Shown: positions 1 to 18,515 of the stretch, piece after piece
Numbering within the stretch: the first letter of the stretch is position 1
How the letters are laid out: each line of letters opens with the position of its first letter
Assembly (NCBI GenBank): GCA_017501345.1
Contig: JAFVXC010000011.1
Span: 1 to 19,772, forward strand
DNA: 19,772 bases
Direction: 5' to 3'
Origin: Clostridia bacterium
GTDB taxonomy: Bacteria; Bacillota_A; Clostridia; Oscillospirales; CAG-272
Notes under the pieces: model-generated
The model's input: only the letters and a program-made list of their open reading frames with translations
The model's database searches: none
Told to the model about the DNA's origin: nothing
Position numbers and translations under genes: made by a program

Positions 1-3000
1 AAATATACCACGGGCTCACCGTTCTTCGTCACGACACGCGCAATGGCGTTATCTCGATCGATCACGATGCTCTCACCCGTCGACTTGTTCTCTACCCGCT
101 GAAGATCGGTAGCCTTCTCTCGGATCGCCTCGGATTTCGCTTCCTTTGAATTATTTTTCGAAGAACTATTGACATTTCCCACAGAATCGGGTATACTATT
201 AGTAGCAGAGTTCGATTGAGCATTGGGTAACGGCAATTGTAGCCTATTGACCTTCAACCAATCGTCAACTCTGCTTTTGTTTTCGTTTACAAAACGGACG
301 TTGCTGGAGTTTATCAAATTCTGCGTATCCTTGCGCGTATATGCACTTGCAACCTTTATCACATCCACATAAGATGAGTTTCCTCTTCTTGTAGTTGGGT
401 TAATCTCTAATACCACTATAACAGGTCTGCCTTTAGCATAAATTTCTCCCAAAACCACAAGGCGACCATCGACAGTTTTAGAATCAAGCACCAAAATGGG
501 ATCGTTCAGAAGATACGGCAGATTCTTGATAACCTCGGTTGTCATTTCAGGATGATCCCGCATAATTTTTTTAATCTTTGTAGCATCTATGCGTATCTGC
601 CTTTTGCCAATCTTCTTTCTGTTTACTTCCAGCTCAGAAAGGTACGAGGGCGTTTCACCCAAAACAAAAGCAAATCCATCGGTTTTTCCATCCCACGAGT
701 CAATGCGTTTTTGGAAATTTTCAGCGTAGGCTTTGTTTTTTTCAGAAACAGAATGCTCTTCACTATTATCCGTAACCTGCATGTTTTCGTCATTCGTGCG
801 CGTTACGGTCTTTTTATTTTCTCCGTTCTTCTCCCGTGCTGCCGCCTTCTGCTTTTCGATCTCCGCTTCCCTCGCGGCATCCTTCTCCGCACGAACCGTC
901 GTACCGAGCTCGTAGGCGAGCTTCCTCTGACTTTCGGAAAGCCCCCAAAAATCACTTCCACGGGGAATATTCTCCATCCGGAGACCCACAGAGCCGTAAA
1001 GATACCCGTCCTCCACCGCACGGGCATACTGCTGTGCAGAAATCCCCGACGTCTCGGAATACGCCCCGATCAGAGCGTCAGCCGACTCGGGTGCCATCCC
1101 CTCGATCCGCGGGATCTTGTCGTAAAGCTCGTTCTTTGCGTCCGACCCGAAATCAAGCGCGGCACTCTGAGCAGTGCTTCCGTCCGACAGCTTCACGGTC
1201 GCGACGCCATCCTTCACGGACACGATCTTCTCGACTGTCGCCTCGGCTCCGTCGTCAAGCCGCGTCACGGCACCGACCGTCGCGCCCTCTCCGCTTGTTT
1301 TCGGCACCGCAGAGCCGCTTTCCGAGCCGCGAGGGGTTTCTACCCCCGTAGCACCCTCGAACGCCTCTGCGCCCCTCTTGGCGGTCTCTGTGCCCTTTGT
1401 GTCGGTCGCGCTCGCCTCGATCGCCTTGCCGACCTGATTCTTGACCTCATACGAAAGCCTGCCGACGTTCTTCGCGGAGGCTTTTTTCTCTACCTTCGAG
1501 GTGAGCTTCTCCAACCGCTTCGCGTCCCGCTTACTCGCATCGGCCGCAAGCTCACGCGAGAATTCAAGCAGCGGGTCGACACCGTTTTCATTGATGATGC
1601 GCCGCCCATCTCGTTTCGCCGCTTGATTATACTGTGCATTATTGGCTGATGCGGCTATGTAACCTCCAACACCGCCGCTGATGAACCCTCCGATTCCGGC
1701 GTTCACAACATTCTTTGCAAATGTTCCAAAGTCTTCCCAATTCGATTGGCTACCCATCACAAGAGCATCGGTGAGTGTGTTCACGATCTCGGTTGCCATC
1801 TCCTCGCTCGCTTCAACACCACCCATAATGCTCGCACGGACGAATCCCTCCCAAAAGCTCTTAACGGCCTTTTTGTCCATATCCTTAATGGCTTTAAGCT
1901 CGCCAATAGATATTTTCTCAAACACCATCTCTGCGGCACCGTAAAGAATACCCTCGCCGAGCATCTGCTCCATTGTACCGCCTCTTTCGTAAACGTCCTT
2001 CATTGCAGACGTAGCGGCATTCATACCAAGAAGCACATGACCGCCGGGGATTACGGATGCAAGTGCCGAGTCACCAAAGGACATAATGCTTTGATACACG
2101 TCCCCGAAGGTTGTTCCAACCAAAGGCAACGCCGCGTTTCCGAAAAATTCATTTATATCCTCTGCGGTATCCTGCCGAATTGCAGAGGCATCGTTCGTAA
2201 AGGAGTGAGCCGCAGAGTAGGGGTTATATTCCTTTCCTTCAATGGCGCCGATAGTGTCTTCGAGAGCACCGATAACACCTCCAAAAACAGACATAGGAAC
2301 GGATGCGATATTATACCCTATCTGTTCAAGGAGACCGGCCTTGCTGATTTCGTCCGCTCTCTTCTCGGTTGCTCTTTTGGTAAGCGGCACAGCCATATCG
2401 TCGAGGTACTTATATGCCGCCTCTTGACCCTGCGTATAGAGAAGATTATAGTAAATGTTTATCTCATAATCGGAGAGCTCGCCCCACGCATTGGCTTTTC
2501 CCTCGGTTAATATGTTCGCCCAAGTGCTACTATTTGGTAGCATAGAAGCGGCTTTACTGAGTTCTTCTTGACTTGCGGCAAGATACATTCCGAGCTTGTC
2601 TTCGACAACGGTATTGTAGAAACCAGCTTCACCTTTCTCCACAAACTCTCTAGTGATGGGATCGCTGTTCTTTTCGTGGATTTGTCCGTATTTGTTAATT
2701 ATGTTGCCTTCCTCATCAATATCTCCGATGTTTTTAATTAAGTCACGCAGAAAGAGATCATACTTATCAAGCTCTTCCTTTGAAGCATTGGTGTAGTCTC
2801 GGTGTGCGGCATTCTTAAGAAAATCTTCGGTTTCGGGGGTGTAGTATTGATCCAGCTTTCCCTGAACGGATTTGTACTTGTTGTTTTCGGCACGAAGTGC
2901 TTCATATTCGTCGCGGAGAGCCTCTTGCTCTTTGGAGAGGAAAATATCCTCAAGCCAATTCGCAGTCCCATCAGCAGCGGCAAAAAACGGCAACGACTCC

Positions 3001-3569
3001 TTTATCTCCCTCATACGAGCCTCGTTGCTCTGATACCTCTCCTGCCGAGCCTTGACACCCTCTGCGGTTAGCTCTACCTTCTCATCGAGCCAACCAATGT
3101 ACCAATCCTCATATTCCTTTTCGGAGCCGAACTTCGAATAGAGGTCATTCACCTTCGTAAGCTGCTCAAGATAATCCTTACCGTAACCGTCAAAACCGTC
3201 AAGCGCCTTCGTTACAGACTCCACCCATTCTGCGTTGTAATAGTCACCGTAAAGCGAAAGCTCTTTTCGAAAGCTCTGCGCTTTCTTTGCATAATCGTCA
3301 AAAAGCATCTGCGTACTCGAGAGATAGTCCGCAGTACCCTCCCTGTACTTCGATGTGTCGGTCGCTGAAATATAGGCACCTACGTCACGAAGCGAGGTCT
3401 CGTAATCCGTCAGAAAGCCCTGAACGCGATCGCCAAGGGATTCCCTTTTGCGCTTGCGATAGAAATCCTCGACCGTCATTTTTTCAGTGCTCTTCGACCC
3501 CACCGACACCTCGGTAGAGTTTTCGGTCGTTTCTCCTCTTCGCTTCTTGTATAGCTCTTTTACCGTCAT
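1..3569 (-). CDS. Giant polyvalent virion/ejection protein with MuF-C-like domain (3' end outside window)
   Basis: A single frame of at least 1,189 codons runs from the ATG at 3569 off the left edge; I checked every in-frame triplet and found no stop. AGGAGG lies 11 bases before the ATG and 22 bases after the upstream stop. Residues 1-41 contain a near repeat (MTVKELYKKRR then MTVEDFYRKRK). Residues about 45-400 are charged and helical. Three hydrophobic or glycine-rich stretches follow near 409-442, 509-552 and 590-645, as in tape-measure or ejected membrane-active proteins. Residues about 762-795 look like a small beta-barrel module. Residues about 990-1115 (LPYLLNDPILVLDSKT, then RLVVLGEIY, SAYTRKD and RLQLP) resemble the MuF-C/PBECR type of phage nuclease-like domain found in large polyvalent proteins. 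Its place after the nozzle and ejection genes suggests it is packaged and injected. Domain naming is from memory of the family; the role is inferred. Confidence 0.88.
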   Translation of the reverse strand, partial: MTVKELYKKRRGETTENSTEVSVGSKSTEKMTVEDFYRKRKRESLGDRVQGFLTDYETSLRDVGAYISATDTSKYREGTADYLSSTQMLFDDYAKKAQSFRKELSLYGDYYNAEWVESVTKALDGFDGYGKDYLEQLTKVNDLYSKFGSEKEYEDWYIGWLDEKVELTAEGVKARQERYQSNEARMREIKESLPFFAAADGTANWLEDIFLSKEQEALRDEYEALRAENNKYKSVQGKLDQYYTPETEDFLKNAAHRDYTNASKEELDKYDLFLRDLIKNIGDIDEEGNIINKYGQIHEKNSDPITREFVEKGEAGFYNTVVEDKLGMYLAASQEELSKAASMLPNSSTWANILTEGKANAWGELSDYEINIYYNLLYTQGQEAAYKYLDDMAVPLTKRATEKRADEISKAGLLEQIGYNIASVPMSVFGGVIGALEDTIGAIEGKEYNPYSAAHSFTNDASAIRQDTAEDINEFFGNAALPLVGTTFGDVYQSIMSFGDSALASVIPGGHVLLGMNAATSAMKDVYERGGTMEQMLGEGILYGAAEMVFEKISIGELKAIKDMDKKAVKSFWEGFVRASIMGGVEASEEMATEIVNTLTDALVMGSQSNWEDFGTFAKNVVNAGIGGFISGGVGGYIAASANNAQYNQAAKRDGRRIINENGVDPLLEFSRELAADASKRDAKRLEKLTSKVEKKASAKNVGRLSYEVKNQVGKAIEASATDTKGTETAKRGAEAFEGATGVETPRGSESGSAVPKTSGEGATVGAVTRLDDGAEATVEKIVSVKDGVATVKLSDGSTAQSAALDFGSDAKNELYDKIPRIEGMAPESADALIGAYSETSGISAQQYARAVEDGYLYGSVGLRMENIPRGSDFWGLSESQRKLAYELGTTVRAEKDAAREAEIEKQKAAAREKNGENKKTVTRTNDENMQVTDNSEEHSVSEKNKAYAENFQKRIDSWDGKTDGFAFVLGETPSYLSELEVNRKKIGKRQIRIDATKIKKIMRDHPEMTTEVIKNLPYLLNDPILVLDSKTVDGRLVVLGEIYAKGRPVIVVLEINPTTRRGNSSYVDVIKVASAYTRKDTQNLINSSNVRFVNENKSRVDDWLKVNRLQLPLPNAQSNSATNSIPDSVGNVNSSSKNNSKEAKSEAIREKATDLQRVENKSTGESIVIDRDNAIARVVTKNGEPVVY

Positions 3570-7209: not shown

Positions 7210-8286
7210 TCAGTTCGCCAAAGCGGTTTTGGAGAACTTCGAGAGAGACTCGACACGGTAAATGTACTTTGCGATCAGAACCTCTGCCGCCTTCGTCATC
7301 TTCCAGCCAACGGTCGATCTCTGGTTCAGAGGATCGGCAGAGCCCGCAGAACCAAGCTGCTTAATGAAGGTCTCAAGGCCGCCGCCCTCGATCTCGGTGT
7401 CGCCGTAAGCGCCCTCACCGATGAACAGCGTCGAGAATACAGCCATATCAGTCGGACAAGTGTCATCCTTCCAGATCTTCGCATTCGAGGTTGCAACGAA
7501 GCGAACGCCCGCGATGTTGCCGATCTCGCCGTTGAAGAGCTCCTCGGGCTTGCCGTACTTGTGTGCGTCGACCCAATCGTCACATCTGCGGAGATCGTAC
7601 GCCGCATACGGGTGAATGATCGCGACGTAGTCTCCGCCAAAGGTCGGTGCGTTGTTCGCACGGAGACCTGCTGCCGCCTGCTCGACAAGGTCGAGGGTAA
7701 GACGTGCGGTCGCATCGAGTCCCGAACGGGTAGTAACCGCGGTCTCCGCACCCGCCGAGCTGATCTTCGGTGCAAAAATCACGTTGGTGATGCCCGCATT
7801 GATCTTGTTACGGATGACCTTGTCCGCAACGACACCCGCCTGTCTGCCGCACTTCTTTGTTGCCTCTACGATCACGGGATCGATCGAGGTGAACTGAAGC
7901 ATATCGGTCAGCGGAACGAAGCCGCCGTACTGCTTGACGGTCGACTCAAGGGTCTTGACGTTCAGTGCCTGTCCCTCGGGCGTCTGTCCCTCGGTAAGGA
8001 TGCGCTCGTCTACGTCGTCCGAAAGATCCTCGAACTTGCGGAATTCAACCGTCTTGCCGCGTCCCTTCGGGATCGGACGCTTCTGCGCAAACTGCGCGTG
8101 GACGAGCTCTGCGCCCGCCTCATCGATCAGGAGGCCGTCGTAATAGACCTTCTGCTCAGGCGTCATACCCGAGCCGCCCCAACCTCTGATACCGTCGGAT
8201 ACGGTTTCAGTGTTCGCCGCACCCGAGGTCGTGGTATTGATTTCAGCAAAAAGCTGAAGATCCAGATTATACTTATTTTTCTTCAT
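7210..8286 (-). CDS. Major capsid protein, N4-gp56 family, with N-terminal Prp-type cleavage tag
   Basis: A 358-residue protein. The start is the ATG at 8286, eight bases after GAGGAGGGG; the in-frame extension upstream uses the ribosome binding site itself as codons. Family features are the PIPKGRGKTVEFRKF segment (about 71-85), LTEGQTPEG (97-105), YGGFVPLTD (120-128), and the C-terminal IGEGAYGDTEIEGGG and KYIYRVESLSKF. These match the N4-gp56 capsid family (HK97-like fold). Residues 8-14 read LDLQLFA, like the L27 and phage 80alpha tag cut by Prp between F and A; the predicted mature N-terminus is Ala14. The scaffold carries the same tag and a Prp homologue is encoded two genes upstream. 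Capsid family is certain enough; cleavage is inferred. Confidence 0.93.
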   Translation of the reverse strand: MKKNKYNLDLQLFAEINTTTSGAANTETVSDGIRGWGGSGMTPEQKVYYDGLLIDEAGAELVHAQFAQKRPIPKGRGKTVEFRKFEDLSDDVDERILTEGQTPEGQALNVKTLESTVKQYGGFVPLTDMLQFTSIDPVIVEATKKCGRQAGVVADKVIRNKINAGITNVIFAPKISSAGAETAVTTRSGLDATARLTLDLVEQAAAGLRANNAPTFGGDYVAIIHPYAAYDLRRCDDWVDAHKYGKPEELFNGEIGNIAGVRFVATSNAKIWKDDTCPTDMAVFSTLFIGEGAYGDTEIEGGGLETFIKQLGSAGSADPLNQRSTVGWKMTKAAEVLIAKYIYRVESLSKFSKTALAN

Positions 8287-8328
8287 ATTTCCCCTCCTCA
8301 AGGGTTGTTTTTTTGATCATTTTTCGGG

Positions 8329-9318
8329 TCAAAGAACGATCTTTTCCCCATTCATAGCACGACGGGCGATCTCCGCTCTGTCGGCCTTCGTAAATGAATG
8401 AACGTCGGTCTTTCTGACCGCCGTGGAGGAGGAACGGTTCCCGTTTTCCTGCGGGCGTGACCCGTTTTGGCGCACACTGTTCATAACCCTCGCCTCAGCA
8501 TCCTGCGCCGCCGCGCTCATTGCAGCGTTTACAAGCTCCTGTGCGTGGATCGCCTCGTATGCAGTCTTCATACTGACTCCCGAGCCGAGGATCTTCTTGA
8601 ACTCCGGGTTCCGCAGCTCCGACCGAAGGTCAAAGGCAGGATAGATCTTCTTTACCCCCTCTGCCTCGCCCGAGAGCTGTTGATAGATCCTTTTCGACTC
8701 CTCTTCAGCTTTCCTCGTACGCTCCGCTTCCGCAAGACGCTCGTTTTCGCGCGTTATGGTCCGAATCCTCCGTAACTGCTCGGTCGGCGTCCCCGTCTCA
8801 ATCGATTCCTCCTCAAGATACGAATCATCCTCCTCAACGGCTTTTACGATCGCCTTGACGTCCGTCTTGTCGATGCCGTATTTCTTCGCGAGGATCTCGA
8901 TCATAGGCTGAAGCGTTTCGTACTTCTCCACGGTTTCCTTGGTGGATTTGAAGCGATCGTCAACACTACTCTTCACGCGCTTGCCGTAGAGATCGGCAAA
9001 TTCTCCGTGAATCAGCTCGTCGAAGCGTCTCTCCCGCTCCTCTGCCGTTTCCGTGTTCTCATTTTTCGCTTTTTTCTCCCCGGCGACGGGAGTGGGATCC
9101 GGCACGTCTGTCACCGCACGTCCGTACTGAACGGATGCAAGCGGATTCTTCTGCGCTCCGGATTTTCTGCCAAACTGCGGGGAGGCGATCTCCGCCTTTA
9201 CTGCCTCTTGTCCCGTGGCGGCTCCACCGTCCGCCCCGCCCGAGGATGCAGCCGCTCCATCCGAGAAGAGCTGCAGGTCGAGCTTCACGTGACATTTGTT
9301 AAGATTTGACTTGAGCAT
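8329..9318 (-). CDS. Capsid scaffolding protein with N-terminal Prp-type cleavage tag
   Basis: About 329 residues. I choose the ATG at 9318 because AAAGGAG lies just before it; the longer frame to 9384 would overlap the protease gene. The N-terminus has KLDLQLFS at residues 12-19, matching the tag on the capsid protein. Low-complexity Ala/Gly/Ser residues follow (about 20-40), then a highly charged helical body (about 90-260; EERERRFDELIHGEFADLYGK, RENERLAEAERTRKAEEESK) and a polar, basic C-terminus (about 285-329) that could bind the capsid. High charge, few aromatics and position between protease and capsid genes are typical of phage scaffolds. No serine or cysteine protease motif is visible in it. 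The tag suggests N-terminal trimming by the upstream Prp homologue. Confidence 0.85.
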   Translation of the reverse strand: MLKSNLNKCHVKLDLQLFSDGAAASSGGADGGAATGQEAVKAEIASPQFGRKSGAQKNPLASVQYGRAVTDVPDPTPVAGEKKAKNENTETAEERERRFDELIHGEFADLYGKRVKSSVDDRFKSTKETVEKYETLQPMIEILAKKYGIDKTDVKAIVKAVEEDDSYLEEESIETGTPTEQLRRIRTITRENERLAEAERTRKAEEESKRIYQQLSGEAEGVKKIYPAFDLRSELRNPEFKKILGSGVSMKTAYEAIHAQELVNAAMSAAAQDAEARVMNSVRQNGSRPQENGNRSSSTAVRKTDVHSFTKADRAEIARRAMNGEKIVL

Positions 9319-9368
9319 AATGCTCCTTTCTGCCCGTAAGTGGGCGACCCTATGTATTTTGCAAGGCG

Positions 9369-9692
9369 TTAGCCCGTAAAACAAACGTATTTGGGGTATT
9401 GCTCGGCAAGGAGAGAAAAGCCGACAGCGAAAAACGACGTTGCCGCTCTAAAATCCTCCCTTGCGGATTCCCCGACGTCTGCGGAAAGCACGGTGTTTCC
9501 GGATTCGAGCTTCTCGTCCACCATCGCGATCTCGCTGTAATCAGAGAGCCGATAGATCACCTCTGCAAGCGTCGACGTCAGAACGGATGCTCCCGCGCAA
9601 ATAAGATCCTGTCCGTACGGTGCATACCCCGCGTGCCCCGATACGTAGAAGAAAAATCTACCGTCCTTCTCCTCGGTATAAGCGTGGATCAA
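9369..9692 (-). CDS. prp: Phage-encoded ribosomal-processing cysteine protease Prp homologue (head maturation)
   Basis: A 107-residue protein, the normal length for Prp/YsxB. The family signature is complete: GHAGYAPYGQDLICAGAS at residues 19-36, with catalytic His20 and Cys32. In Bacillota, host Prp removes the N-terminal extension of ribosomal protein L27 and also trims the capsid and scaffold proteins of staphylococcal phage 80alpha. Here the gene is in the head cluster, between portal and scaffold, and both downstream proteins carry the matching tag, so a virion maturation role is the simplest reading. The start is TTG at 9692, seven to eight bases after GAGGTG, just past the portal stop. 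A weak start codon would keep the protease scarce relative to its substrates. Confidence 0.9.
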   Translation of the reverse strand: MIHAYTEEKDGRFFFYVSGHAGYAPYGQDLICAGASVLTSTLAEVIYRLSDYSEIAMVDEKLESGNTVLSADVGESAREDFRAATSFFAVGFSLLAEQYPKYVCFTG

Positions 9693-9703
9693 TAAGCATC
9701 ACC

Positions 9704-11719
9704 TCATCTCGGGGCGGATGCCTGTGCCGCACGCTCTCTTGCACTCCGCGTCACCTCGGATTCCCCCGAGACGGCACTGCTGCCGCCAAGCATCTCCTGC
9801 CCCTCCGTATCGGGCATCTCTTTGCCCGAGGCTGTAGAAGGGCGGCTTTGCTTTCTCTGCGCTCCTCCGCTCTCTGTAGGCATCTGAAGAGGCATTCCCG
9901 TTGCCTTCGCGAGCGCCTCCGTGAGCATCACGATCTGCTGCTGCATCTCCATCAACTGCTGATACATCGTTCCGTTCTGCGCGATCCGTGCCTGCACGAA
10001 GGACTTCCTGTCAAAGTCCATCATTTCGAGGCAAGCGAGCGCATTGTCGGCGTTCCCGGGCTGGAAAAAGCCTTGACCATAGAACTGAAGTGCAAGCTCG
10101 TTCTGCGACATTTTCGAGTACGGGCTCTGCTTCTGCGCCGTGACCTCGATGTCAAAAAGCGGTACGCGAGGATCACCGTTCGTTTGCGATCGAATATTCG
10201 CGTTGCTGTATTTCACGTACCGCTCTGCCCCTCCGTCTCCCGCGATGCGGAAGCACCGAGGGAGATCGTAAAACTGACGGATCAGCTCGATCACGAGAAG
10301 CACGATGCGGCGATAGGCGCGATACGAAGCCTTGATGATATCTCTCGACTGCTTCGAGCCCGCCTCCTGGAGCGCGGCGATCGCCGACGCAGCAGTGACA
10401 CCCGAGGTGCTTCCGCCCGTCGAAACGTCTCTGCACCCCGTCACCTCCTTCAGCTCCGCGATCTTCCCCTCGAGAACCGAAAGATATACCGAGGGAAGCG
10501 TATTCCCCTTGATAAAGATCACAGAATCACTTGAAATGCTTTCGGCGTGTACGATCGACTTCGTCGTATCAGCGAACTCTTCCTCATTCAGCCCCGAGGA
10601 ATTCTTCACGATCGCACGCGGCTTTGCGTTCACGAACAGATTTTCGAGAATCGCACTGTTCGACCTGTCGATGTATTCCTGCGCTTCCTTCCCGACGTCA
10701 ATGTAGGAATATCCCGCAGGAGACCCCTCGATCGGAAAAAGCACGTCAAATTCGAACGGGTACCGTCCGTGATCGTAAAGCCCGCTCTCGGCTACCGAAG
10801 GACCCGCTTCTACCATCACCGCTTGTCCGGTTGCAGGATCTATCTGCTGCTTCATAGGCCTCTGTACCTCGTTCTCGGTCGCGTATAGCACGGCAGAACC
10901 CGAGAACTTGCAGTAGTGAAGCACGACCCTTCCGTTTGGATTTCGCCGCTTGTAATACCAATCGACGACCATACACTTATCCGAGAGATCGACCTCATCG
11001 TCGTAGATGTATTTCGTTACGTCGCCCGATTCCCCACTCGCGAGGCTTCCTTCGTGGTCCGGATATTGCGATTCCAGCAGATCACGGTCAACGAAATCAA
11101 CCACAAAAAGGTTTGCAGACTCCTGAATATCGGTCACTCCGGGCTCCCAGAACATCCGAAGGAGATCTACCTTACGAATACTGATGTCCCCGAGACCTCC
11201 GTGTGCGGATCCGTCCCAGAACACACCGTAGACCCCCGCACCGTGCTTCAGCTTGTACTGCCATACGTCGCTGTATGTGCGTTCAAAATCACACTGATCA
11301 AGGAGCACGGGCACGACCGACGAGAGAAGCTCCGCCTCTGCCTTGTCTCCTTCCTCTCGCGGAAGAATGTTCGGCGACGGAAAGTTATCCATCGCGTCCG
11401 CATGCTTGTTCTGAAGCGCATTGAAGAGCCACGCCGACGCGGGCTCTGCGTGCTCCTCGGGGTCTCTCTCCTCTTTTCCCTCGCTCCCCTTCCGCATCTG
11501 CTCCCAATGACGGAGCTTGTACCACTCCTCGTTCGCAACGATCTTTGCGTCAAGGTTCTTCTTACCGCGCATATAGCGTTGCATCGTCGCGTATGCCGTC
11601 GCCACGCGCTCTGCGTTGATCTGCGGCTTGTATTCGGTGTAACCGCTTTCGGGGGCATTCCCACCCATAGAAGCATTGCGCTTCCCGAACGCACCGAATA
11701 GCTTTTGTAAAGGATTCAT
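9704..11719 (-). CDS. Portal protein
   Basis: About 671 residues from the ATG at 11719 (MNPLQKLFGAFGKRN), chosen because ATGAGG lies six bases upstream. An in-frame ATG at 11731 lacks a good site, and the longer frame to 11809 runs through palindromic DNA. The protein has the charged helical N-terminal region, the wing and stem segments (KVDLLRMFWEPGVTDIQES, EYIDRSNSAILENLFV) and the segment around residues 430-470 (STGGSTSGVTAASAIAALQE) that I know from portals of podovirus-like phages. A Gln/Met-rich helix and a disordered Ser/Thr/Gly tail end the protein. The portal forms the dodecameric ring at the vertex used for DNA packaging and works with the terminase encoded just upstream. Confidence 0.88.
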   Translation of the reverse strand: MNPLQKLFGAFGKRNASMGGNAPESGYTEYKPQINAERVATAYATMQRYMRGKKNLDAKIVANEEWYKLRHWEQMRKGSEGKEERDPEEHAEPASAWLFNALQNKHADAMDNFPSPNILPREEGDKAEAELLSSVVPVLLDQCDFERTYSDVWQYKLKHGAGVYGVFWDGSAHGGLGDISIRKVDLLRMFWEPGVTDIQESANLFVVDFVDRDLLESQYPDHEGSLASGESGDVTKYIYDDEVDLSDKCMVVDWYYKRRNPNGRVVLHYCKFSGSAVLYATENEVQRPMKQQIDPATGQAVMVEAGPSVAESGLYDHGRYPFEFDVLFPIEGSPAGYSYIDVGKEAQEYIDRSNSAILENLFVNAKPRAIVKNSSGLNEEEFADTTKSIVHAESISSDSVIFIKGNTLPSVYLSVLEGKIAELKEVTGCRDVSTGGSTSGVTAASAIAALQEAGSKQSRDIIKASYRAYRRIVLLVIELIRQFYDLPRCFRIAGDGGAERYVKYSNANIRSQTNGDPRVPLFDIEVTAQKQSPYSKMSQNELALQFYGQGFFQPGNADNALACLEMMDFDRKSFVQARIAQNGTMYQQLMEMQQQIVMLTEALAKATGMPLQMPTESGGAQRKQSRPSTASGKEMPDTEGQEMLGGSSAVSGESEVTRSARERAAQASAPR

Positions 11720-11731
11720 ATAATACCTCAT

Positions 11732-11748
11732 GTCGCGCCCTGCGCGAC
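11732..11748 (-). other. 7-bp GC hairpin touching the portal ribosome binding site
   Basis: On the minus strand, GTCGCGC and GCGCGAC pair perfectly around the loop AGG. The stem ends one base before the ATGAGG that serves as the ribosome binding site of the portal gene. A stable hairpin here could tune portal translation or mark the end of the structured leader upstream. Confidence 0.6.
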
Positions 11749-11763
11749 GCAAATAGATTTTGT

Positions 11764-11823
11764 AATTCGCTCGTGCCGCTTCTGCGGCAAAAATGGGCTC
11801 GGGTCCCATTTTTAGAGCGAATT
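11764..11823 (-). other. Perfect three-way-junction palindrome between terminase and portal genes
   Basis: In 60 bases there are three perfect stems, totalling 23 bp. The outer stem pairs AATTCGCTC with GAGCGAATT (11815-11823 and 11764-11772). One inner hairpin pairs AAAAATGGG with CCCATTTTT (11805-11813 and 11789-11797) around a 7-base loop. A second pairs GCCGC with GCGGC (11784-11788 and 11775-11779) around a 4-base loop. Only three bases are unpaired at the junction. The pattern could be a structured RNA, an attenuator (the inner hairpin ends in five T), or a dispersed palindromic repeat of the host. The weak reading frame through it is probably not translated. Confidence 0.7.
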
Positions 11824-11826
11824 GAT

Positions 11827-11870
11827 GCGTGAACAGTAGATTTCGGTCTTATGATTTCAAGCCTTCACGC
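11827..11870 (-). repeat. Inverted repeat at the 3' end of the terminase gene
   Basis: GCGTGAA (11827-11833) and TTCACGC (11864-11870) are perfect inverted copies, 30 bases apart. The second copy overlaps the last base of the terminase TAG. The arms lie just outside the three-way-junction palindrome on the terminase side and may belong to the same structured element. Seven base pairs across a 30-base loop is modest evidence. Confidence 0.35.
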
Positions 11871-13351
11871 TATTCCTCCTCATTTTCGTCAAATATTAAG
11901 ATCTCACGGTTGCGGTCATCCGTATGAAGCTCCTCATCCGTGAGCCCGAACACCGCGTAAAGCGGATCGCTTTGAAGATCCTTTCTTTCCTTTTGTCTGC
12001 GCGGCAGGATCGGACGCGCCATACACATATATCGCCACTCGTCCGCAATGTGATCCTCCATCGCCGTATTGATATCCTCAACCTTGTGCTCGTCGAATTG
12101 GAGAAGCGGGACGGTCCTGATGAAATCCTTGCAATTTTTGAAGACGTACATCCTCGGATACCCGTTCTCATCGAACTGTAAGCGATAATGACATTGCATC
12201 CACCCGGGAATGCGCTTGTGGTCGCCGGGATCAAAAAACACGTGATACCGCTCCGCCGTCTCCGCAATCGATACACCGCTTTCAGCGTCCCAGATCGCGG
12301 GATCGGCAATACCATAGATCCTTCGTCCTCGGAGCCACGGATGCTCTACCTCAATACGATGGATCTCCCGAAATACCTCGTCGGGCGTCTTTCGCACTCC
12401 CTCGTTCGGCGTTCCCGTGCAGCCGTAATACTCGAGGATCCTATATAGCATCCCGTCGTAGTCGATTGCCCACCACGCACAGGAAAAGGGCCTCGCATAT
12501 CCCCAGTCGAAGGAACGGTAAACCGTCCATCCCGCAGGCGGCTCAAACGGATCGATCACGTGCGTAAACCGCCTGTCCTTGTAGTGCTCGGGATCATCTC
12601 TCCATTCAGCGAAATACTGCCCCGAATAACTGTTCCAATCCCCGTATAAAAGTGCTTTACGTTCAGCCTCGGGAAGTGAAGCAAGACGCGCCAAATAATC
12701 CGGATCGTTTTCGAGTAAGATCTTATTGTCAAATACCGAAGACGGAACAAAGATCCTCGACCTGTACCGCGTATCCGTTTTTCCGTTCGGATGTTGCACC
12801 TGCACCTTTTCCCACATCGTCGTCATCGGCTTCGCGGGCGTGATAAATCGATCCTTCACCCATCCGTGACCTATCCCTCCGGGGTTCGCCGTGGCCCTGA
12901 TGTAACACCTCGTACCGGGTCCGTTCGGACGGTTTCGCGAGGAAAGGTAAATGTACTCCTCGTACGTAAAATGCGTCAACTCATCAAAAGCGATAAAATC
13001 GTACGCTTTTCCTTGATAATTCAGCTTGTCTTTGGAATGCTGCATAGATCCAAACACAATCTTCGCTCCGCTGCGAAACGTCCAAGTGTGCTTGGAATCG
13101 TTGTATCGCGCATCCGGAAACGCGGCAGGATAGTATAGCAGCGACTTCTCGATCAGTTCTGTCAGCTGTGGATAGGTCTTTCGGAGGATCAGCGCCTTGT
13201 AATGTGGAATATGTACCTGTCGCGTCGCTTCGATCACAAGGGCGTCAGACTTTCCTCCTCCCGCCGCACCTCCGTATAGCGCCTCGTCCTCGGGGCGAGA
13301 CATAAACGCTATCTGCCTCGGTTGAGGCTTCCACACTGCGTTATTCTCCAT
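11870..13351 (-). CDS. terL: Terminase large subunit (packaging ATPase and nuclease)
   Basis: A 493-residue protein of normal length. The ATPase domain has Walker A GGAAGGGKS at 27-35, Walker B YDFIAFDE at 117-124 with the catalytic Glu, and the coupling segment RATANPGG at 152-159. The nuclease domain has the expected acidic residues: Asp282 in SFDWGY, Asp350 in YGIADPAIW, and Asp437 in DHIADEW. The protein translocates DNA into the prohead through the portal and cuts the concatemer. Its ATG at 13351 overlaps the 3' end of the small subunit gene by 11 bases and follows GGAGGACGATT, so the two subunits are translationally coupled. The stop is TAG. No key residue is missing. Confidence 0.96.
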   Translation of the reverse strand: MENNAVWKPQPRQIAFMSRPEDEALYGGAAGGGKSDALVIEATRQVHIPHYKALILRKTYPQLTELIEKSLLYYPAAFPDARYNDSKHTWTFRSGAKIVFGSMQHSKDKLNYQGKAYDFIAFDELTHFTYEEYIYLSSRNRPNGPGTRCYIRATANPGGIGHGWVKDRFITPAKPMTTMWEKVQVQHPNGKTDTRYRSRIFVPSSVFDNKILLENDPDYLARLASLPEAERKALLYGDWNSYSGQYFAEWRDDPEHYKDRRFTHVIDPFEPPAGWTVYRSFDWGYARPFSCAWWAIDYDGMLYRILEYYGCTGTPNEGVRKTPDEVFREIHRIEVEHPWLRGRRIYGIADPAIWDAESGVSIAETAERYHVFFDPGDHKRIPGWMQCHYRLQFDENGYPRMYVFKNCKDFIRTVPLLQFDEHKVEDINTAMEDHIADEWRYMCMARPILPRRQKERKDLQSDPLYAVFGLTDEELHTDDRNREILIFDENEEE

Positions 13352-14361: not shown

Positions 14362-14730
14362 TTATATCTTCTCGTTTTTCGCATACCTGCATATCTCCCG
14401 CGCCGCCTCCTCAAAGCCGCGGCAAACGACCGCACGGTATCCATTCAGAGAGAGGAGCGCGAGCCACTCCTCCTGCTCGGGCGAGGTCTTGCCCCGCCCG
14501 TATTTCAGCTCGATGAAGAGCCCGTGAAAGCCCTCTCGGGCGAGCGGGACGAACAGATCGGGGAATCCCTTCCGCAGTCCCGCACGCTTCATCTGCGCGG
14601 CGTACGCCGCCGACCGCTTCCCCTCGTTCGGGATATGTACGATCGGTATGTGGCGCACGTCGCAGTATTCGACCAGAGCCTCCTGCTCGGCAGCCTCGGA
14701 GGAGAGGTAGCGATCACTCTGCTTTCGCAC
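14362..14730 (-). CDS. VRR-NUC domain nuclease
   Basis: About 122 residues, essentially a lone VRR-NUC domain of the PD-(D/E)XK superfamily. Visible motifs are the N-terminal EQEALVEYC helix, HIPNEGKRS, KGFPDLFVP with Pro57-Asp58, GLFIELKYGRGKTS with Glu74 and Lys76, the Q86 helix (PEQEEWLALL) and the GYRAVVCRGFEEA end. Such stand-alone VRR-NUC proteins are common in phages and are thought to process branched DNA during replication or recombination. The start is uncertain: the GTG at 14730 has GAGGTG eight bases upstream, while GTG codons at 14739 and 14760 are also in frame. The gene is translated close behind or overlapping the DUF3102 stop. Confidence 0.9.
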   Translation of the reverse strand: MRKQSDRYLSSEAAEQEALVEYCDVRHIPIVHIPNEGKRSAAYAAQMKRAGLRKGFPDLFVPLAREGFHGLFIELKYGRGKTSPEQEEWLALLSLNGYRAVVCRGFEEAAREICRYAKNEKI

Positions 14731-14740
14731 AGCATTCACC

Positions 14741-15790
14741 TCACACCTGCCACCCGGCACGGTTGATCAGCCCAAGAAGCGTGGACTCACACCGAGCGCG
14801 CATCTTCTGCCCGCTTCCGGGGTTCTCCTTCTCCATCGCCTCAATCTCCGCGTTGATATCGTTCAGCGCGCGGCTGAAGCCCTCGAGGGCGTACGAGATG
14901 CGGGACGCGTGCGGATCGGACTTCGCGAGCAGCTGACGGATCTTCTTCGCCGTCTCCTCCTGCGCCTCCGCCATCACCTTCTTGTGATGCTCCTCCCTCT
15001 CTGCGAGGTCAGCAGACAACTTCTCAATATCGTTCTTGTGCTTCTCCTCGACCTCTGCGATCGCCTCTGCGCGGATCTTCTCGATCTGCTCGGCAGTCGG
15101 CGCGTAGACGGTCTCGGTTTCGGTCACGACCTCCTTTTCTTTCGGAGCGTTGCGGAGCTTCTCGAGCTCCTTTTCGAGCTCATCGGCACGCCCTGCGCGC
15201 TCCTCTGCATCGCGCACCCGTTCCTCGGTTTCCTTTATATCCGATTTCGCCTCATAAAGCTCTGTAATAAGCTCCTCGTAGCTTTCTTTACTTTCGAGGA
15301 TCTCCTCGTCCTTCCGGGCGATCACCTCGTCCTTCTTATCGAGCTCTTCCTTCTGCGCCTTGATGAGATCCCGCATCTCCCGGATCGACATATCGCCGCT
15401 TTCAAGCTCCTCGCGGTGCGCCTCGACGAAATCCTCGCGTTCCCCTCTCGGGAGAGCGAACAGCTCAACGAGCTGGGACTGCGACAGACCTCCAAAGGTC
15501 TCGGCGTCGCTCTTGCCCGTCAGCATATTGATCTGCTCCCCGCCAAACTCGCGGTAGATCCGCATCAGGTTCCCGGCGGTGGATTCCGAATACTCGAAAT
15601 TGTTTTCGAGCCACGCGCCCCATTCACCGTGCGGAAGGAGTGCCTTCGCCTCCTCAAGCCGCTTGCCGATCTCAAAGCAGGATTGCTTCGCATAGGTAAA
15701 CGCCGCACAAAGAATCCCCGACGTCTGGGATTTGATCGCATTGATCTCTGCGGCGATCACCGCAGGGCTTCTTACAAGATTGTTGCTCAT
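14741..15790 (-). CDS. DUF3102 protein with long coiled coil
   Basis: A 349-residue protein with AGAGAGG seven bases before the ATG. Residues about 10-75 match the DUF3102 pattern: AAEINAIKSQTSGIL, a helix, then EIGKRLEEAKALLPHGEWGAWL, YSESTAGNLMRIYREFG. The following segment (LSQSQLVELFALPRGERE) resembles the ParB-like or KorB-like helical region often fused to it. Residues about 130-290 form a long, strongly charged coiled coil. A conserved C-terminal helix ends in LGLINRAGWQV. DUF3102 proteins occur widely in Bacillota phages and conjugative elements, usually near replication or DNA-processing genes. A DNA-binding role is likely but not shown. It lies between the PcfJ-like and nuclease genes in one operon. 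Confidence 0.86.
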   Translation of the reverse strand: MSNNLVRSPAVIAAEINAIKSQTSGILCAAFTYAKQSCFEIGKRLEEAKALLPHGEWGAWLENNFEYSESTAGNLMRIYREFGGEQINMLTGKSDAETFGGLSQSQLVELFALPRGEREDFVEAHREELESGDMSIREMRDLIKAQKEELDKKDEVIARKDEEILESKESYEELITELYEAKSDIKETEERVRDAEERAGRADELEKELEKLRNAPKEKEVVTETETVYAPTAEQIEKIRAEAIAEVEEKHKNDIEKLSADLAEREEHHKKVMAEAQEETAKKIRQLLAKSDPHASRISYALEGFSRALNDINAEIEAMEKENPGSGQKMRARCESTLLGLINRAGWQV

Positions 15791-15811
15791 TTTATGTACC
15801 TCTCTTTCTGT

Positions 15812-17962
15812 TTACGAGATTGCCACTATGGGATCTTCGTTGTACTCTTTGAAATCCGCCTCAAGGACCTCGACAAGGAGACGGCCTGCAAGCCGACCGT
15901 TACGGATCACGTTGCCGCCCTTCCGCAGCTCCTCGAATTCCTTCAGCCGCTTCTCCCGGCTGACCTCGGCGGCGTCTATCTCCTTCTTGCCGCCCTCAAC
16001 TTTGCAGAGGCGCTTTTGAACCTCGCTCTGCCACTTGCGGAGTGCCTCCTTCGCTTCTGCACGGTCCTTTCCTTCCTCGTCACCGATCGTACGGAGCTGA
16101 CGCACCTTACCGCCGGGTTCAATCTCCATCGTATACCACGGTGTATCGGGACGGTTCTTTTTCCTGAGAAACATGATGTACGACTCGCTTTCTGCAATAC
16201 GGTCAAAGTATCGGTCGGTCGAGCCGACGCAGTGCCGAAGGAGCCGTCCCTCTCTGATGATGTCGTATGCTCCCGAGGGAACGCGCACCATATAATCCTC
16301 GTCGCTCCATTCGTAGAACGGACGGATGCGGTCACACGTCGGTACAACGGCAGGATAAAGTCCCTCGATGCGATCCCTCTCAAGCTCGTCCTTCTTCTGT
16401 GAAAGGAGCATTGAAAGCTCGTCGTGCCGCCCCTTCAGGTCCTTCGGTCGATAGATCATTTCCTTCGACGTGTCAAGGTTCAGCTTTTCTGCCATATCCA
16501 TATAGTCACGCCATTCTCCGATCACGTGGTTCGCAGAGAGATAGTCCGATTTCTTCCCGTAGAGCCCGATCTGCTTCTCAACGTAATTCGCGGCCGACTC
16601 CGGGGACATCCCACAGTTCAATGCGAACGCAAGATCGGTCGGGCTGACGGCGTGCGCGCTGAACCACCGAAGTGTCTTGTCGGAGATCTTATCGCCGCAC
16701 ATCTGTGCCGACTGAAGCCAATGCAGCACACAGAGATCTCCGTCGAGCTGCCGAAGCCGCGCCACGCCCTGACCGTCGAGAAGGAGCACGTCCTTCGCGC
16801 TGCTGCCGCTCTGCTTGATCCCGCGCACGTACGCCCATCGGAGGATCGAGATCTCGTCGACGAGCCCCTTGAACCCGCCCTTAATGAGATACTCGGTCAC
16901 GGGTCTGCGGTCGATCATCAGGTTATTGTAGCCGATGTACCACCCTCTCGCGGCGGCTGTTTCAAGCCCGAGCCCGTCGTAAACGGTATTCGAAAGCGCT
17001 TCCTTTACGGTGTGCGGGTAGGTGTATTCGCGTTTGGTACGGAAATTTCCGAGATTGCGGTCGTGCCAGCTCGTACCGAACCACCCCCGGCAGTGGTAGA
17101 ACCACTTCGACGCAGACTCTGCGGGGTGCAGGATATCCTTCGCCTTCGGAAGCACGATCACCATCGCGTCGTCGGGATAGATCTTCATCCCTCTCTCCGT
17201 CCACTCTGCCCATACGTAGAGATGCCGCGCGACCGCGCACCTTCCGAACGGGGTATCGTCCTCCATACTCTGAAGCAGCTGTACCTGTTCCCTCTTCTCG
17301 ATGCAGGTTTTTCGCTTCGTTACCTTGACCTTTTGGTTTGTACGCTTACATACCGTCTCCTGCCGATCCTTCAATCCCTTGATGCGGTGTTTTTGGCCGC
17401 ACGCGGTGCAGCTGTATTCGTCGCACTTCGCCTTCCCGAAGAAATAGTGCTCTCCCTTGAATACGACCTTCTTGCACCACTCCTCAAAATCCTCGGGGTA
17501 CTCGGGTAGGAGTGCTATAAAGTCGTGGATCTTCTTCGATTTGTTTCTCTCATACGTCTGTCGGCGGTCCTCGTTGTAGTGATCATCGATTCTCTGGAGA
17601 CGCTCGGTGACCTGATTGACCGAATAACAGGACGTTGTGAGCTCCTCGAGGTAGGGCTCTGCGACCCGTCTGCTTGCAGGGTTCGCGTAGCTCTGCGACG
17701 TACCGTAGAGGTCGCACCCGTAGATCCATCCTCCACCGAGAAGATATCGGATGCCCTCAGTTCCCCACGTGTCGCACTTTTCTCTCTTTGTGGCCCGTCT
17801 GCCGTTCTTATGCAGCACGTAAATACCACACCGCTCCCCGTCTCTGTATACGCCGAGGATCAGCCGATCGTCGTTTTCGATCGCGCGGTAGACGATGCCC
17901 TGCTTCTTCGGGATCTTCTCGCCCCGGTACCACTCCGCGATCTCCTTTCTCGTCATTCTCAT
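15812..17962 (-). CDS. PcfJ-like protein
   Basis: A 716-residue protein whose ATG at 17962 overlaps no gene but lies one base after the previous stop, with GGGAGG ten bases upstream. A zinc-ribbon-like CTACG (Cys185, Cys188) with another Cys near 205 lies in the N-terminal half. The C-terminal third carries the PcfJ signature: RLLRHCVGSTDRYF from about 573, SYIMFLRKK, then DTPWYTMEIEPGGKVRQ near 606-622. PcfJ was named in the Enterococcus conjugative plasmid pCF10, and homologues are common in Bacillota and Bacteroidota phages and prophages. The biochemical role is unknown. A PcfK-like gene lies two genes upstream in the same operon, which supports the call. Confidence 0.87.
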   Translation of the reverse strand: MRMTRKEIAEWYRGEKIPKKQGIVYRAIENDDRLILGVYRDGERCGIYVLHKNGRRATKREKCDTWGTEGIRYLLGGGWIYGCDLYGTSQSYANPASRRVAEPYLEELTTSCYSVNQVTERLQRIDDHYNEDRRQTYERNKSKKIHDFIALLPEYPEDFEEWCKKVVFKGEHYFFGKAKCDEYSCTACGQKHRIKGLKDRQETVCKRTNQKVKVTKRKTCIEKREQVQLLQSMEDDTPFGRCAVARHLYVWAEWTERGMKIYPDDAMVIVLPKAKDILHPAESASKWFYHCRGWFGTSWHDRNLGNFRTKREYTYPHTVKEALSNTVYDGLGLETAAARGWYIGYNNLMIDRRPVTEYLIKGGFKGLVDEISILRWAYVRGIKQSGSSAKDVLLLDGQGVARLRQLDGDLCVLHWLQSAQMCGDKISDKTLRWFSAHAVSPTDLAFALNCGMSPESAANYVEKQIGLYGKKSDYLSANHVIGEWRDYMDMAEKLNLDTSKEMIYRPKDLKGRHDELSMLLSQKKDELERDRIEGLYPAVVPTCDRIRPFYEWSDEDYMVRVPSGAYDIIREGRLLRHCVGSTDRYFDRIAESESYIMFLRKKNRPDTPWYTMEIEPGGKVRQLRTIGDEEGKDRAEAKEALRKWQSEVQKRLCKVEGGKKEIDAAEVSREKRLKEFEELRKGGNVIRNGRLAGRLLVEVLEADFKEYNEDPIVAIS

Positions 17963-17963
17963 A

Positions 17964-18515
17964 TCACGTCACCTCCCGTGCTTTCCCGCGCGTGTCATAC
18001 CATACGTCGGGAAGCAGCTCCTCACCGTCAATGCGATACAGTCCGACCTCAAGGACCGCCCCGTCCTCTCCCTCTCTCGCGAGAGCAAGATAATCACCAA
18101 CCCTTCCGCCGCGCGCAACAGGATCCTTCCCGCGCACTACGATGAAATCGTTATAGGACACCTCTCCGCGCTCTGCGGAAACGTGATCGCTCCACGGTCG
18201 CTTCGGATGCTCTGCCATATACTGAAGCGCATGGGCAAGAAATTCCTCTTTTCCGAGACGTCTGAGGATCTCGAGGCGCGTGCAGGAGATCTTCGAATCC
18301 GATCCGTCCTCGTGCACGTCTCCGTCCGCATAGCAGAGCCAACACTCGCTTTCATTAAAGTTGCTGTAATATGAAAGGCAGTCAAGCGGGTTCTCCGCTG
18401 CGTGAAAGCCCTCTCTCACACAGGTCGCATGCTCGCATTCGTTCACACCGACCTTGAATTGATAATCACGGCAAACGAGACCGGGACAGAACATCTTGTA
18501 TACGTACATTCCCAC
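17964..18515 (-). CDS. DUF7666-type phage protein
   Basis: A 183-residue protein. The N-terminal half carries the conserved pattern I associate with DUF7666: MYVYKMFCPGLVCRDYQF, a CEHATCVREGFHAAENPLD segment with paired cysteines and His, and LSYYSNFNESECWLCYADG. The second half has a strand-rich stretch ending VGLYRIDGEELLPDVWY. The family is frequent in phages of Bacillota but its function is unknown. The start is GTG at 18515, two bases after the stop of the PcfK-like gene; an ATG two codons later is also possible. The gene separates the PcfK-like and PcfJ-like genes, so the three probably act in, or are at least expressed in, the same unit. Confidence 0.8.
   Translation of the reverse strand: MGMYVYKMFCPGLVCRDYQFKVGVNECEHATCVREGFHAAENPLDCLSYYSNFNESECWLCYADGDVHEDGSDSKISCTRLEILRRLGKEEFLAHALQYMAEHPKRPWSDHVSAERGEVSYNDFIVVRGKDPVARGGRVGDYLALAREGEDGAVLEVGLYRIDGEELLPDVWYDTRGKAREVT

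What the first reader, a model, noticed from the sequence alone, without database searches (positions are those of the whole stretch)
7210..9692. Self-contained Prp head-maturation module: protease gene next to two virion proteins with the same cleavage tag
The protease at 9369-9692 has the complete Prp motif (His20, Cys32). Both the scaffold (LDLQLFS, residues 13-19) and the capsid protein (LDLQLFA, residues 8-14) carry the L27-type tag. At DNA level five of the six LDLQLF codons differ between the two genes, all synonymously, so the match reflects selection on protein. Established: host Prp trims L27, and the capsid and scaffold of phage 80alpha. Inferred: this podovirus-like phage brings its own Prp and uses it on N4-gp56 capsids. 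A side effect on host L27 is conceivable.
Basis: partly seen in the sequence, partly recalled or inferred. Interest (0 to 1): 0.78.

Follow-up and report, generated by a model that had tools for sequence, protein, structure and literature searches.

The report
Phage-borne Prp protease with matching tags
A gut phage carries its own copy of a bacterial ribosome-trimming protease beside two head proteins that bear that protease's cutting tag, and comparison with about a hundred related phages suggests that protease and tags travel and change together, even in some bacteria that have no such protease of their own.

Summary
The window has a Prp protease (PF04327; His20, Asp29, Cys32), a scaffold with LDLQLFS and an N4-gp56 capsid with LDLQLFA; five of six shared codons differ synonymously. 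(1) 105 of 114 dereplicated relatives have Prp within 4 kb upstream of the capsid. (2) Of 58 host genomes whose L27 N-terminus was read, 24 have L27 without the extension and no Prp found except at phage loci (10 are isolates, two of them complete chromosomes); all 24 phages keep Prp, so the host enzyme cannot be required there. (3) Tag and protease covary: Prps with a shortened His-Cys loop go with tags lacking the P3 Gln (capsid 14 of 15, against 5 of 110 others), although independent changes are few. (4) In Faecalibacterium phages and others Prp and scaffold are one reading frame with the tag at the junction. Phage-borne Prps are not new as such (phiFL3A, PLgT-1, Cp-1). Nine relatives lack Prp, seven with a capsid tag; in the three with readable hosts the host has Prp. 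The host of the window is unknown.

The parts
9369..9692 (-). Prp-family cysteine protease gene (107 aa, TTG start)
   Evidence: PF04327 58.2 bits; phrog_4478 peptidase; AlphaFold model pLDDT 91.4; the 11 Foldseek PDB hits at E<=0.001 are S. aureus Prp (7jvs, 7kld, 4peo) and streptococcal proteins 2g0i/2g0j/2idl, which also match the Prp profile
9633..9635 (-). catalytic His20 codon
   Evidence: invariant in alignments A1, A6 and A8; equivalence to SaPrp His22 is my reading of PMC9405229
9606..9608 (-). Asp29 codon, likely equivalent of SaPrp Asp31 that stabilises the active-site loop
   Evidence: role of Asp31 from PMC9405229 section 3.3.1
9597..9599 (-). catalytic Cys32 codon
   Evidence: invariant
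9699..9705 (-). GAGGTGA, likely ribosome-binding site of the Prp gene
   Evidence: read from the upstream string (inference)
8329..9318 (-). scaffold gene (329 aa, ATG), phrog_13908 family
   Evidence: 304 homologues, 120 listed; position between Prp and capsid in relatives
9262..9282 (-). scaffold tag LDLQLF|S, residues 13-19
   Evidence: pattern in 119 of 120 listed homologues
7210..8286 (-). N4-gp56 family major capsid protein gene (358 aa, ATG)
   Evidence: TIGR04387 256.9 bits, cut-off 60; phrog_1357
8245..8265 (-). capsid tag LDLQLF|A, residues 8-14
   Evidence: pattern in 118 of 120 listed homologues; Q11 and F13 invariant in 26 aligned capsids
9704..11809 (-). portal protein gene, P22 type, directly upstream of Prp
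   Evidence: PF16510 132.9 bits; phrog_156
11870..13351 (-). terminase large subunit gene
   Evidence: PF03237; phrog_979

Best explanation
A phage head-maturation module with its own dedicated Prp protease. Shown: a complete Prp active site and a predicted Prp fold, a conserved gene order portal-Prp-scaffold-capsid, and the same Prp-type tag at the N-termini of scaffold and capsid. Inferred: during head assembly the phage Prp cuts both proteins after Phe (scaffold after residue 18, capsid after residue 13), removing short N-terminal peptides. It does not depend on host Prp or on ribosome maturation, and it coevolves with its tags. Why the cut is made is open: by analogy with 80alpha, the uncut scaffold tag may matter more than the cut.
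For: Prp family and fold. Tags in 118 of 120 and 119 of 120 listed homologues, 0 of 120 in internal control stretches; portal N-termini as control: 1 of 97 with a full-score Gln tag, against 77 of 124 capsids and 71 of 124 scaffolds. Prp within 4 kb upstream of the capsid in 105 of 114 dereplicated loci not fetched by Prp. Hosts without Prp: of 73 host genomes, L27 was found in 60 and its N-terminus read in 58; 24 have short L27 and PF04327 hits only at phage loci, and all 24 phages carry Prp (positions matched by script). Covariation: short His-Cys loop with capsid P3 not Gln 14 of 15 against 5 of 110; scaffold 11 of 13 against 6 of 100; gains on the same tree branches 3, null mean 0.28, P 0.00125. 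Prp-scaffold fusions with the tag at the junction, 28 distinct junctions.
Against: No cleavage data. 9 of 114 relatives lack Prp, seven of them with a capsid tag. The count of independent loop-tag changes is small: treekit's independent pairs give 3-4 of 5 the same way for the capsid and about 2 of 4 for the scaffold, none the other way, none significant. One short-loop phage (L135) keeps LQLF tags; L109, L281, L315, L092 and L313 have a non-Gln tag on at least one protein with an 11-residue loop. The fused AlphaFold model leaves the junction tag below pLDDT 50. The host of the window is unknown, so the host-Prp argument is made on relatives, many of them metagenome bins.
Confidence: 0.87

Rival explanations
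1. The host Prp does the cutting, as for 80alpha, and the phage Prp is redundant or has another target such as host L27.
For: Precedent of 80alpha (PMC5744158). 9 of 114 relatives have no Prp and seven of these show a capsid tag; the three of these with readable hosts (L267, L276, L311) sit in hosts with Prp and long L27. L311's tags (SLQFF|A, GYQFF|A) resemble its host L27 tag (GLQFF|A).
Against: 24 host genomes have neither long L27 nor a detectable host Prp, yet their phages keep Prp; 23 of these 24 keep an LQ or IQ capsid tag and one (L281) has LNLKNF|A. L310 has LNLKRF|D and LNLRRF|D tags with its own altered Prp in a host with MNLQFF|A and a standard Prp. Fusions tie Prp physically to the scaffold.
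Confidence: 0.07
2. The tag is mainly a binding or folding signal and Prp acts chiefly as an assembly factor; cutting is incidental.
For: In 80alpha uncleavable capsid and scaffold are viable while the precleaved scaffold makes no capsids (PMC5744158). PMC9405229 has a section on a chaperone role of Prp, whose heading alone was seen.
Against: The invariant residues include both catalytic ones, His20 and Cys32, and F at P1 with a small or acidic P1' residue is mostly kept, which suggests that catalysis is selected. Compatible in part with the best explanation.
Confidence: 0.12
3. Chance: unrelated Prp-like gene and coincidental N-terminal peptides.
For: None found.
Against: Pattern in 118 of 120 and 119 of 120 listed homologues with 0 of 120 in controls; expectation about 2e-6 in the window.
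Confidence: 0.005

Closest known systems
Staphylococcus phage 80alpha capsid and scaffold cut by host Prp (PMC5744158, passages)
   Same: N-terminal L27-like tag on both scaffold and capsid; cut between F and A
   Different: 80alpha uses the host protease; here the phage carries Prp upstream of the two genes
Ribosomal-processing Prp of Firmicutes (MEROPS C108, ysxB between rplU and rpmA; PMC9405229, passages and sections 3.1, 3.2, 3.3.1)
   Same: Fold, Cys-His dyad, loop Asp, tag type
   Different: Lies in a phage head cluster; below the cut-off of every NCBIfam Prp equivalog that it matched (best 33.4 bits, lowest listed cut-off 133)
Pneumococcal phage Cp-1 protease (PMC12445089 and PMC9405229, passages; original 1998 paper not held)
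   Same: A phage's own protease, placed with Prp in clan CR, that trims the N-terminus of the major head protein (first 48 residues in one passage, about 40 in the other)
   Different: Cp-1 orf13 scores only 18.5 bits to PF04327, below the cut-off of 27, has a 7-residue His-Cys loop, and the capsid start shows no LQ-type tag; that orf13 is the protease is my reading, the record calls it hypothetical
Prp genes of Enterococcus phiFL3A, Lactococcus PLgT-1 and TP712, Oenococcus phages
   Same: Prp at or just after the portal gene, tagged scaffold and capsid downstream (five of the six isolate phages fetched as Prp hits)
   Different: A minor head gene lies between Prp and scaffold (MuF domain noted for phiFL3A); annotated only as peptidase, ribosomal protein, hypothetical or unknown
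Protease-scaffold fusions: herpesvirus assemblin/scaffold, lambda C/Nu3 (recalled, not from a call)
   Same: Protease and scaffold in one reading frame, as in the fused relatives
   Different: Unrelated protease folds (recalled); the window itself is not fused

Membership tests
Prp peptidases (PF04327 / MEROPS C108) | Sequence score over the curated Pfam cut-off | tested here: met
   58.2 bits, cut-off 27
Prp peptidases (PF04327 / MEROPS C108) | Catalytic His and Cys, loop Asp | tested here: met
   His20, Cys32, Asp29
Prp peptidases (PF04327 / MEROPS C108) | Prp fold | tested here: met
   Predicted model pLDDT 91.4; TM 0.71 to 7jvs, 0.67 to 2g0j, by query length
Prp peptidases (PF04327 / MEROPS C108) | Cuts after F in LxLQxF | not testable with these tools
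   Needs an assay or mass spectrometry
Ribosomal-processing Prp (NCBIfam equivalogs) | Score over an equivalog cut-off | tested here: not met
   Best 33.4 bits against 185
Ribosomal-processing Prp (NCBIfam equivalogs) | Gene between rplU and rpmA | tested here: not met
   Lies between portal and scaffold
N4-gp56 major capsid proteins (TIGR04387) | Score over cut-off | tested here: met
   256.9 bits, cut-off 60
Prp-processed head proteins (80alpha type) | Prp-type tag near the N-terminus of both capsid and scaffold | tested here: met
Prp-processed head proteins (80alpha type) | Observed cleavage between F and A | not testable with these tools
   No virion protein data
Scaffolding proteins | Internal, released assembly scaffold | tested here: inconclusive
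   Position, size and family (phrog_13908, unknown function) fit; no structure for it alone, no Pfam or NCBIfam family

The most novel reading that the evidence does not exclude
In N4-gp56 phages of gut Clostridia, Prp is a dedicated head-maturation protease that evolves with its tags and needs neither host Prp nor a long L27. In Faecalibacterium phages and some others it is built into the scaffold as one Prp-tag-scaffold polyprotein that cuts itself at the junction: the plan of a herpesvirus protease-scaffold, made from an unrelated enzyme. The ribosomal Prp-L27 pair of Firmicutes could then be a domesticated phage module.
Probability: 0.5. Interest if true: 0.78.

Novelty: new variant of a known kind. 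Interest (0 to 1): 0.62.

Why it matters
Prp is known as a ribosome-maturation enzyme and proposed antibiotic target that phage 80alpha borrows from its host. Here is a large phage family in which the enzyme belongs to the phage, is kept where the host has none, and changes with its tags. That gives natural protease-tag pairs for dissecting Prp specificity (including natural Prps without the loop Asp), makes the question why Prp tags sit on self-assembling complexes testable, and raises the question which came first, the phage or the ribosomal use.

Tried and rejected
Host genome of the window: none held. The A9 and A10 capsid scans were made to find more loop variants; they added few (L383, L416, L381). 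A first survey figure that required the window-type portal (282 of 288 loci, 122 of 125 dereplicated) was biased towards Prp carriers, because phages with other portals (L267, L276, L312, L316, L411, L430) were left out; I use 105 of 114 instead. The covariation test was defined after seeing the variants. Its detector ignores P3; it misread two capsid tags (L090, L034), which are counted against me and corrected by eye only in the rows marked so. The five non-Gln capsids among the 110 are these two, L109, L281 and L381 (12-residue loop without the Asp); the six scaffolds are L092, L109, L140, L313, L315 and L381. Adding loops of 12-13 residues and loss of the Asp raises same-branch gains to 4 of 7, P 7e-5, post hoc. 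Capsid and scaffold tags lose Gln together (13 of 17 against 4 of 96), but independent pairs are too few to test it (about 2.6 of 6 the same way, 0.2 the other). Phages without Prp are not shown to be tied to hosts with Prp (0 of 24 short-L27 hosts, three long-L27 hosts; no test run). Rows dropped: loci without Prp, without a readable loop or with a capsid tag score under 6, which left 125 of 143 dereplicated loci (124 in the tree). Considered and rejected: chance; gene conversion between the two tags (five of six codons differ in the window).
Full report
WHAT IS THERE. The window (19,772 bases, GC 0.54) is a phage late region on the minus strand: terminase large subunit, P22-type portal, Prp, scaffold, N4-gp56 capsid, then further genes, among them one of the phrog_511 'internal virion protein' family. 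The Prp gene (9369-9692) scores 58.2 bits to PF04327 and is predicted with pLDDT 91.4. The 11 PDB matches at E<=0.001 are S. aureus Prp, one entry with a substrate peptide (7jvs, TM 0.71), and streptococcal proteins that match the Prp profile too. It stays far below the NCBIfam cut-offs for the ribosomal enzyme, so it is a Prp peptidase, not the ribosomal equivalog. The scaffold carries LDLQLF|S and the capsid LDLQLF|A; five of six codons differ, all synonymously. No other gene in my list of 19 has the tag.

THE TAG IS CONSERVED. Among the 120 best listed capsid relatives (of 5401 scored hits) and the 120 best listed scaffold relatives (of 304), 118 and 119 carry the tag pattern near the N-terminus; none does at residues 101-145. 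A first, stricter pattern that demands Leu at P6 found 37 of 120 and 107 of 120; the capsids that fail it mostly have another residue there.

PROTEASE AND TAGGED GENES TRAVEL TOGETHER. I fetched relatives by capsid or scaffold similarity, not by Prp (each returns only the best 80). With at least 4 kb upstream of the capsid, 221 of 236 loci, or 105 of 114 after dereplication at 90% capsid identity, have Prp within 4 kb upstream. Nine lack it (L149, L227, L267, L276, L311, L312, L316, L411, L430). L149 looks rearranged; L311's capsid tag is degenerate (GYQFF|A) with the scaffold tag kept; the other seven show a capsid tag.

HOSTS WITHOUT PRP. The genome scan gave named hosts, mostly metagenome-assembled Clostridia and Faecalibacterium. 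I gave 73 of its 80 loci to the genome searches, which reached 73 genomes, and searched L27 and Prp in them. L27 was found in 60 (45 of 50 and 15 of 24; one genome, without L27, was in both sets); its N-terminus could be read in 58. In 33 it has the extension (two are cut at a contig end but show FF or LF before AHKK); in 30 of these a Prp gene lies beside L27 (one, G073, with a stop inside). In 25 it is short; one of these, a Treponema bin, has Prp beside L27, and 24 have no Prp match other than at phage loci. A script matched every PF04327 hit of these 24 genomes to the head locus of a fetched phage, save one: that one, in G032, is a further Prp-scaffold frame with the tag at its junction, in a stretch that also encodes a tagged N4-gp56-like capsid start. 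Of the 24 phages, 23 have an LQ or IQ capsid tag; L281 has LNLKNF|A. Ten of the 24 are isolates by record title: Faecalibacterium longum, F. prausnitzii (three), F. gallinarum, Faecalibacterium sp. I4-1-79 and I4-3-84 (complete chromosomes), An121, An122, and Cuneatibacter NSJ-177. The Prp search finds B. subtilis, L. lactis and T. maritima among its controls. In these hosts the phage Prp cannot be a mere copy of a host activity, and L27 offers no tag. The other genomes are bins, so a missing gene may be a gap. For the three phages without Prp whose hosts could be read (L267, L276, L311), the host has Prp and long L27; this fits use of the host enzyme but rests on three cases. L316's bin has two Prp matches but no L27, L312's bin has neither.

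TAG AND PROTEASE COVARY. The canonical loop has 11 residues between His and Cys. Of 125 dereplicated loci with readable loop and capsid tag (from 143), 15 have a shorter loop (6, 7, 8 or 10); 14 of these have a capsid tag without Gln at P3 (LTLF, LDMF, LHLF, LRLF, LKRF, LGLF and the like), against 5 of 110 others; for the scaffold 11 of 13 against 6 of 100; P1' is Asp or Glu in 10 of 15 against 4 of 110 capsids and 12 of 13 against 4 of 100 scaffolds. The tag detector ignores P3. Fisher p-values (1.4e-13 and so on) ignore descent: most of the short loops form one clade. On a capsid-core tree, gains of a short loop and of a non-Gln capsid tag fall on the same branch three times (null mean 0.28, P 0.00125); treekit's stricter independent pairs give 3-4 of 5 the same way and none the other, which cannot reach significance. 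Counter-examples: L135 (8-residue loop, LQLF) and L109, L281, L315, L092, L313 (11-residue loop, non-Gln in at least one tag). The 6- and 7-residue loops also lack the Asp that aligns with SaPrp Asp31, whose loss kills SaPrp (PMC9405229 section 3.3.1). In one bin the host has MNLQFF|A with a normal Prp, while its phage has LNLKRF|D, LNLRRF|D and a short-loop Prp (L310).

FUSIONS. In 12 of 125 dereplicated loci the Prp and scaffold HMM hits lie in one uninterrupted reading frame; 28 distinct junctions with a tag were seen over all loci. In an alignment of 23 fusions, L, Q and F of the junction tag are invariant. In 23 of the 28 a start codon lies at P6 or P7 of the tag, often after a purine-rich stretch, so free scaffold could also be made by internal initiation; in five (L051, L120, L146, L147, L156) there is none, so release of scaffold would need cleavage. 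All Prp frames of Faecalibacterium genomes listed but one (G040, 150 aa) are 310-484 aa long, as expected for fusions. The model of one fusion gives no confident placing of the tag.

HOW IT MOST LIKELY WORKS. Shown: enzyme, tags, order, conservation, presence in relatives whose hosts lack Prp, fusion. Inferred: the phage Prp cuts scaffold and capsid after Phe during assembly; placing protease with scaffold would bring it into the procapsid. Unknown: what the cut achieves. In 80alpha capsid cleavage is dispensable, and the scaffold needs its N-terminus but not its removal (PMC5744158, passages).

WHAT IS KNOWN. 80alpha uses host Prp. Cp-1 has its own protease, placed in the same clan, that cuts its head protein (PMC12445089 passage; PMC9405229 passage). 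tblastn finds 18 phage records with a match to the window Prp and 25 with a match to the PLgT-1 Prp, annotated, where annotated, as peptidase, ribosomal protein, hypothetical or unknown. In five of six isolate phages fetched as Prp hits (L002-L004, L006, L007) both scaffold and capsid carry the tag; in the sixth, the Dorea phage L005, the motif search found tagged genes but no complete Prp frame. In the held library I found no account of phage Prps acting on their own heads apart from Cp-1, of hosts without Prp, or of Prp-scaffold fusions (listings, with five papers on Prp or phage proteases opened for passages or sections); the 2015 Prp paper and the 1998 Cp-1 paper are not held, so they may say more. 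The PMC10846135 passage only names a phage protease beside general Prp text; the PMC8569155 passages concern another type of protease.

VERDICT. The finding is real and its inference is well supported. For the window alone it is a new member of a known kind; with the covariation, the Prp-free hosts and the fusions it is a new variant of phage head maturation.

Noticed in passing
L284 9001-9939, L155 8571-9920, L051 7597-9015 and others: Prp and scaffold in one reading frame with the tag at the junction, 28 distinct junctions; five have no start codon near the tag.
   Followed up: partly
L216 5718-6020, L222 5519-5827, L226 6924-7223, L253 8667-8981: Natural Prps with a 6- or 7-residue His-Cys loop that lack the loop Asp but keep His and Cys, paired with LTLF/LSMF/LHLF/LGLF-type tags; L216 is below the Pfam cut-off (23 bits), the other three above.
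   Followed up: partly
L311 8983-10990: A relative without Prp whose tags (SLQFF|A, GYQFF|A) resemble the L27 tag of its host (GLQFF|A), which has Prp.
   Followed up: partly
L044 8001-8285: The matched Prp stretch contains a stop codon in this viral contig.
   Followed up: no
L361 (G009, Treponema bin): Short L27 with a Prp gene beside it, in a genome bin that also holds an N4-gp56 phage with its own Prp.
   Followed up: no
L510 (G068): The L27 match in this Faecalibacterium bin has two TAA codons inside it, perhaps an assembly fault.
   Followed up: no
window 3-3569: 1189-aa open frame at the window edge with a MuF C-terminal domain (PF18819).
   Followed up: no
window 14362-18515: VRR-NUC nuclease (14362-14760), DUF3102 (14741-15790), PcfJ-like (15812-17962) and DUF7666 (17964-18515) genes upstream of the terminase region.
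   Followed up: no
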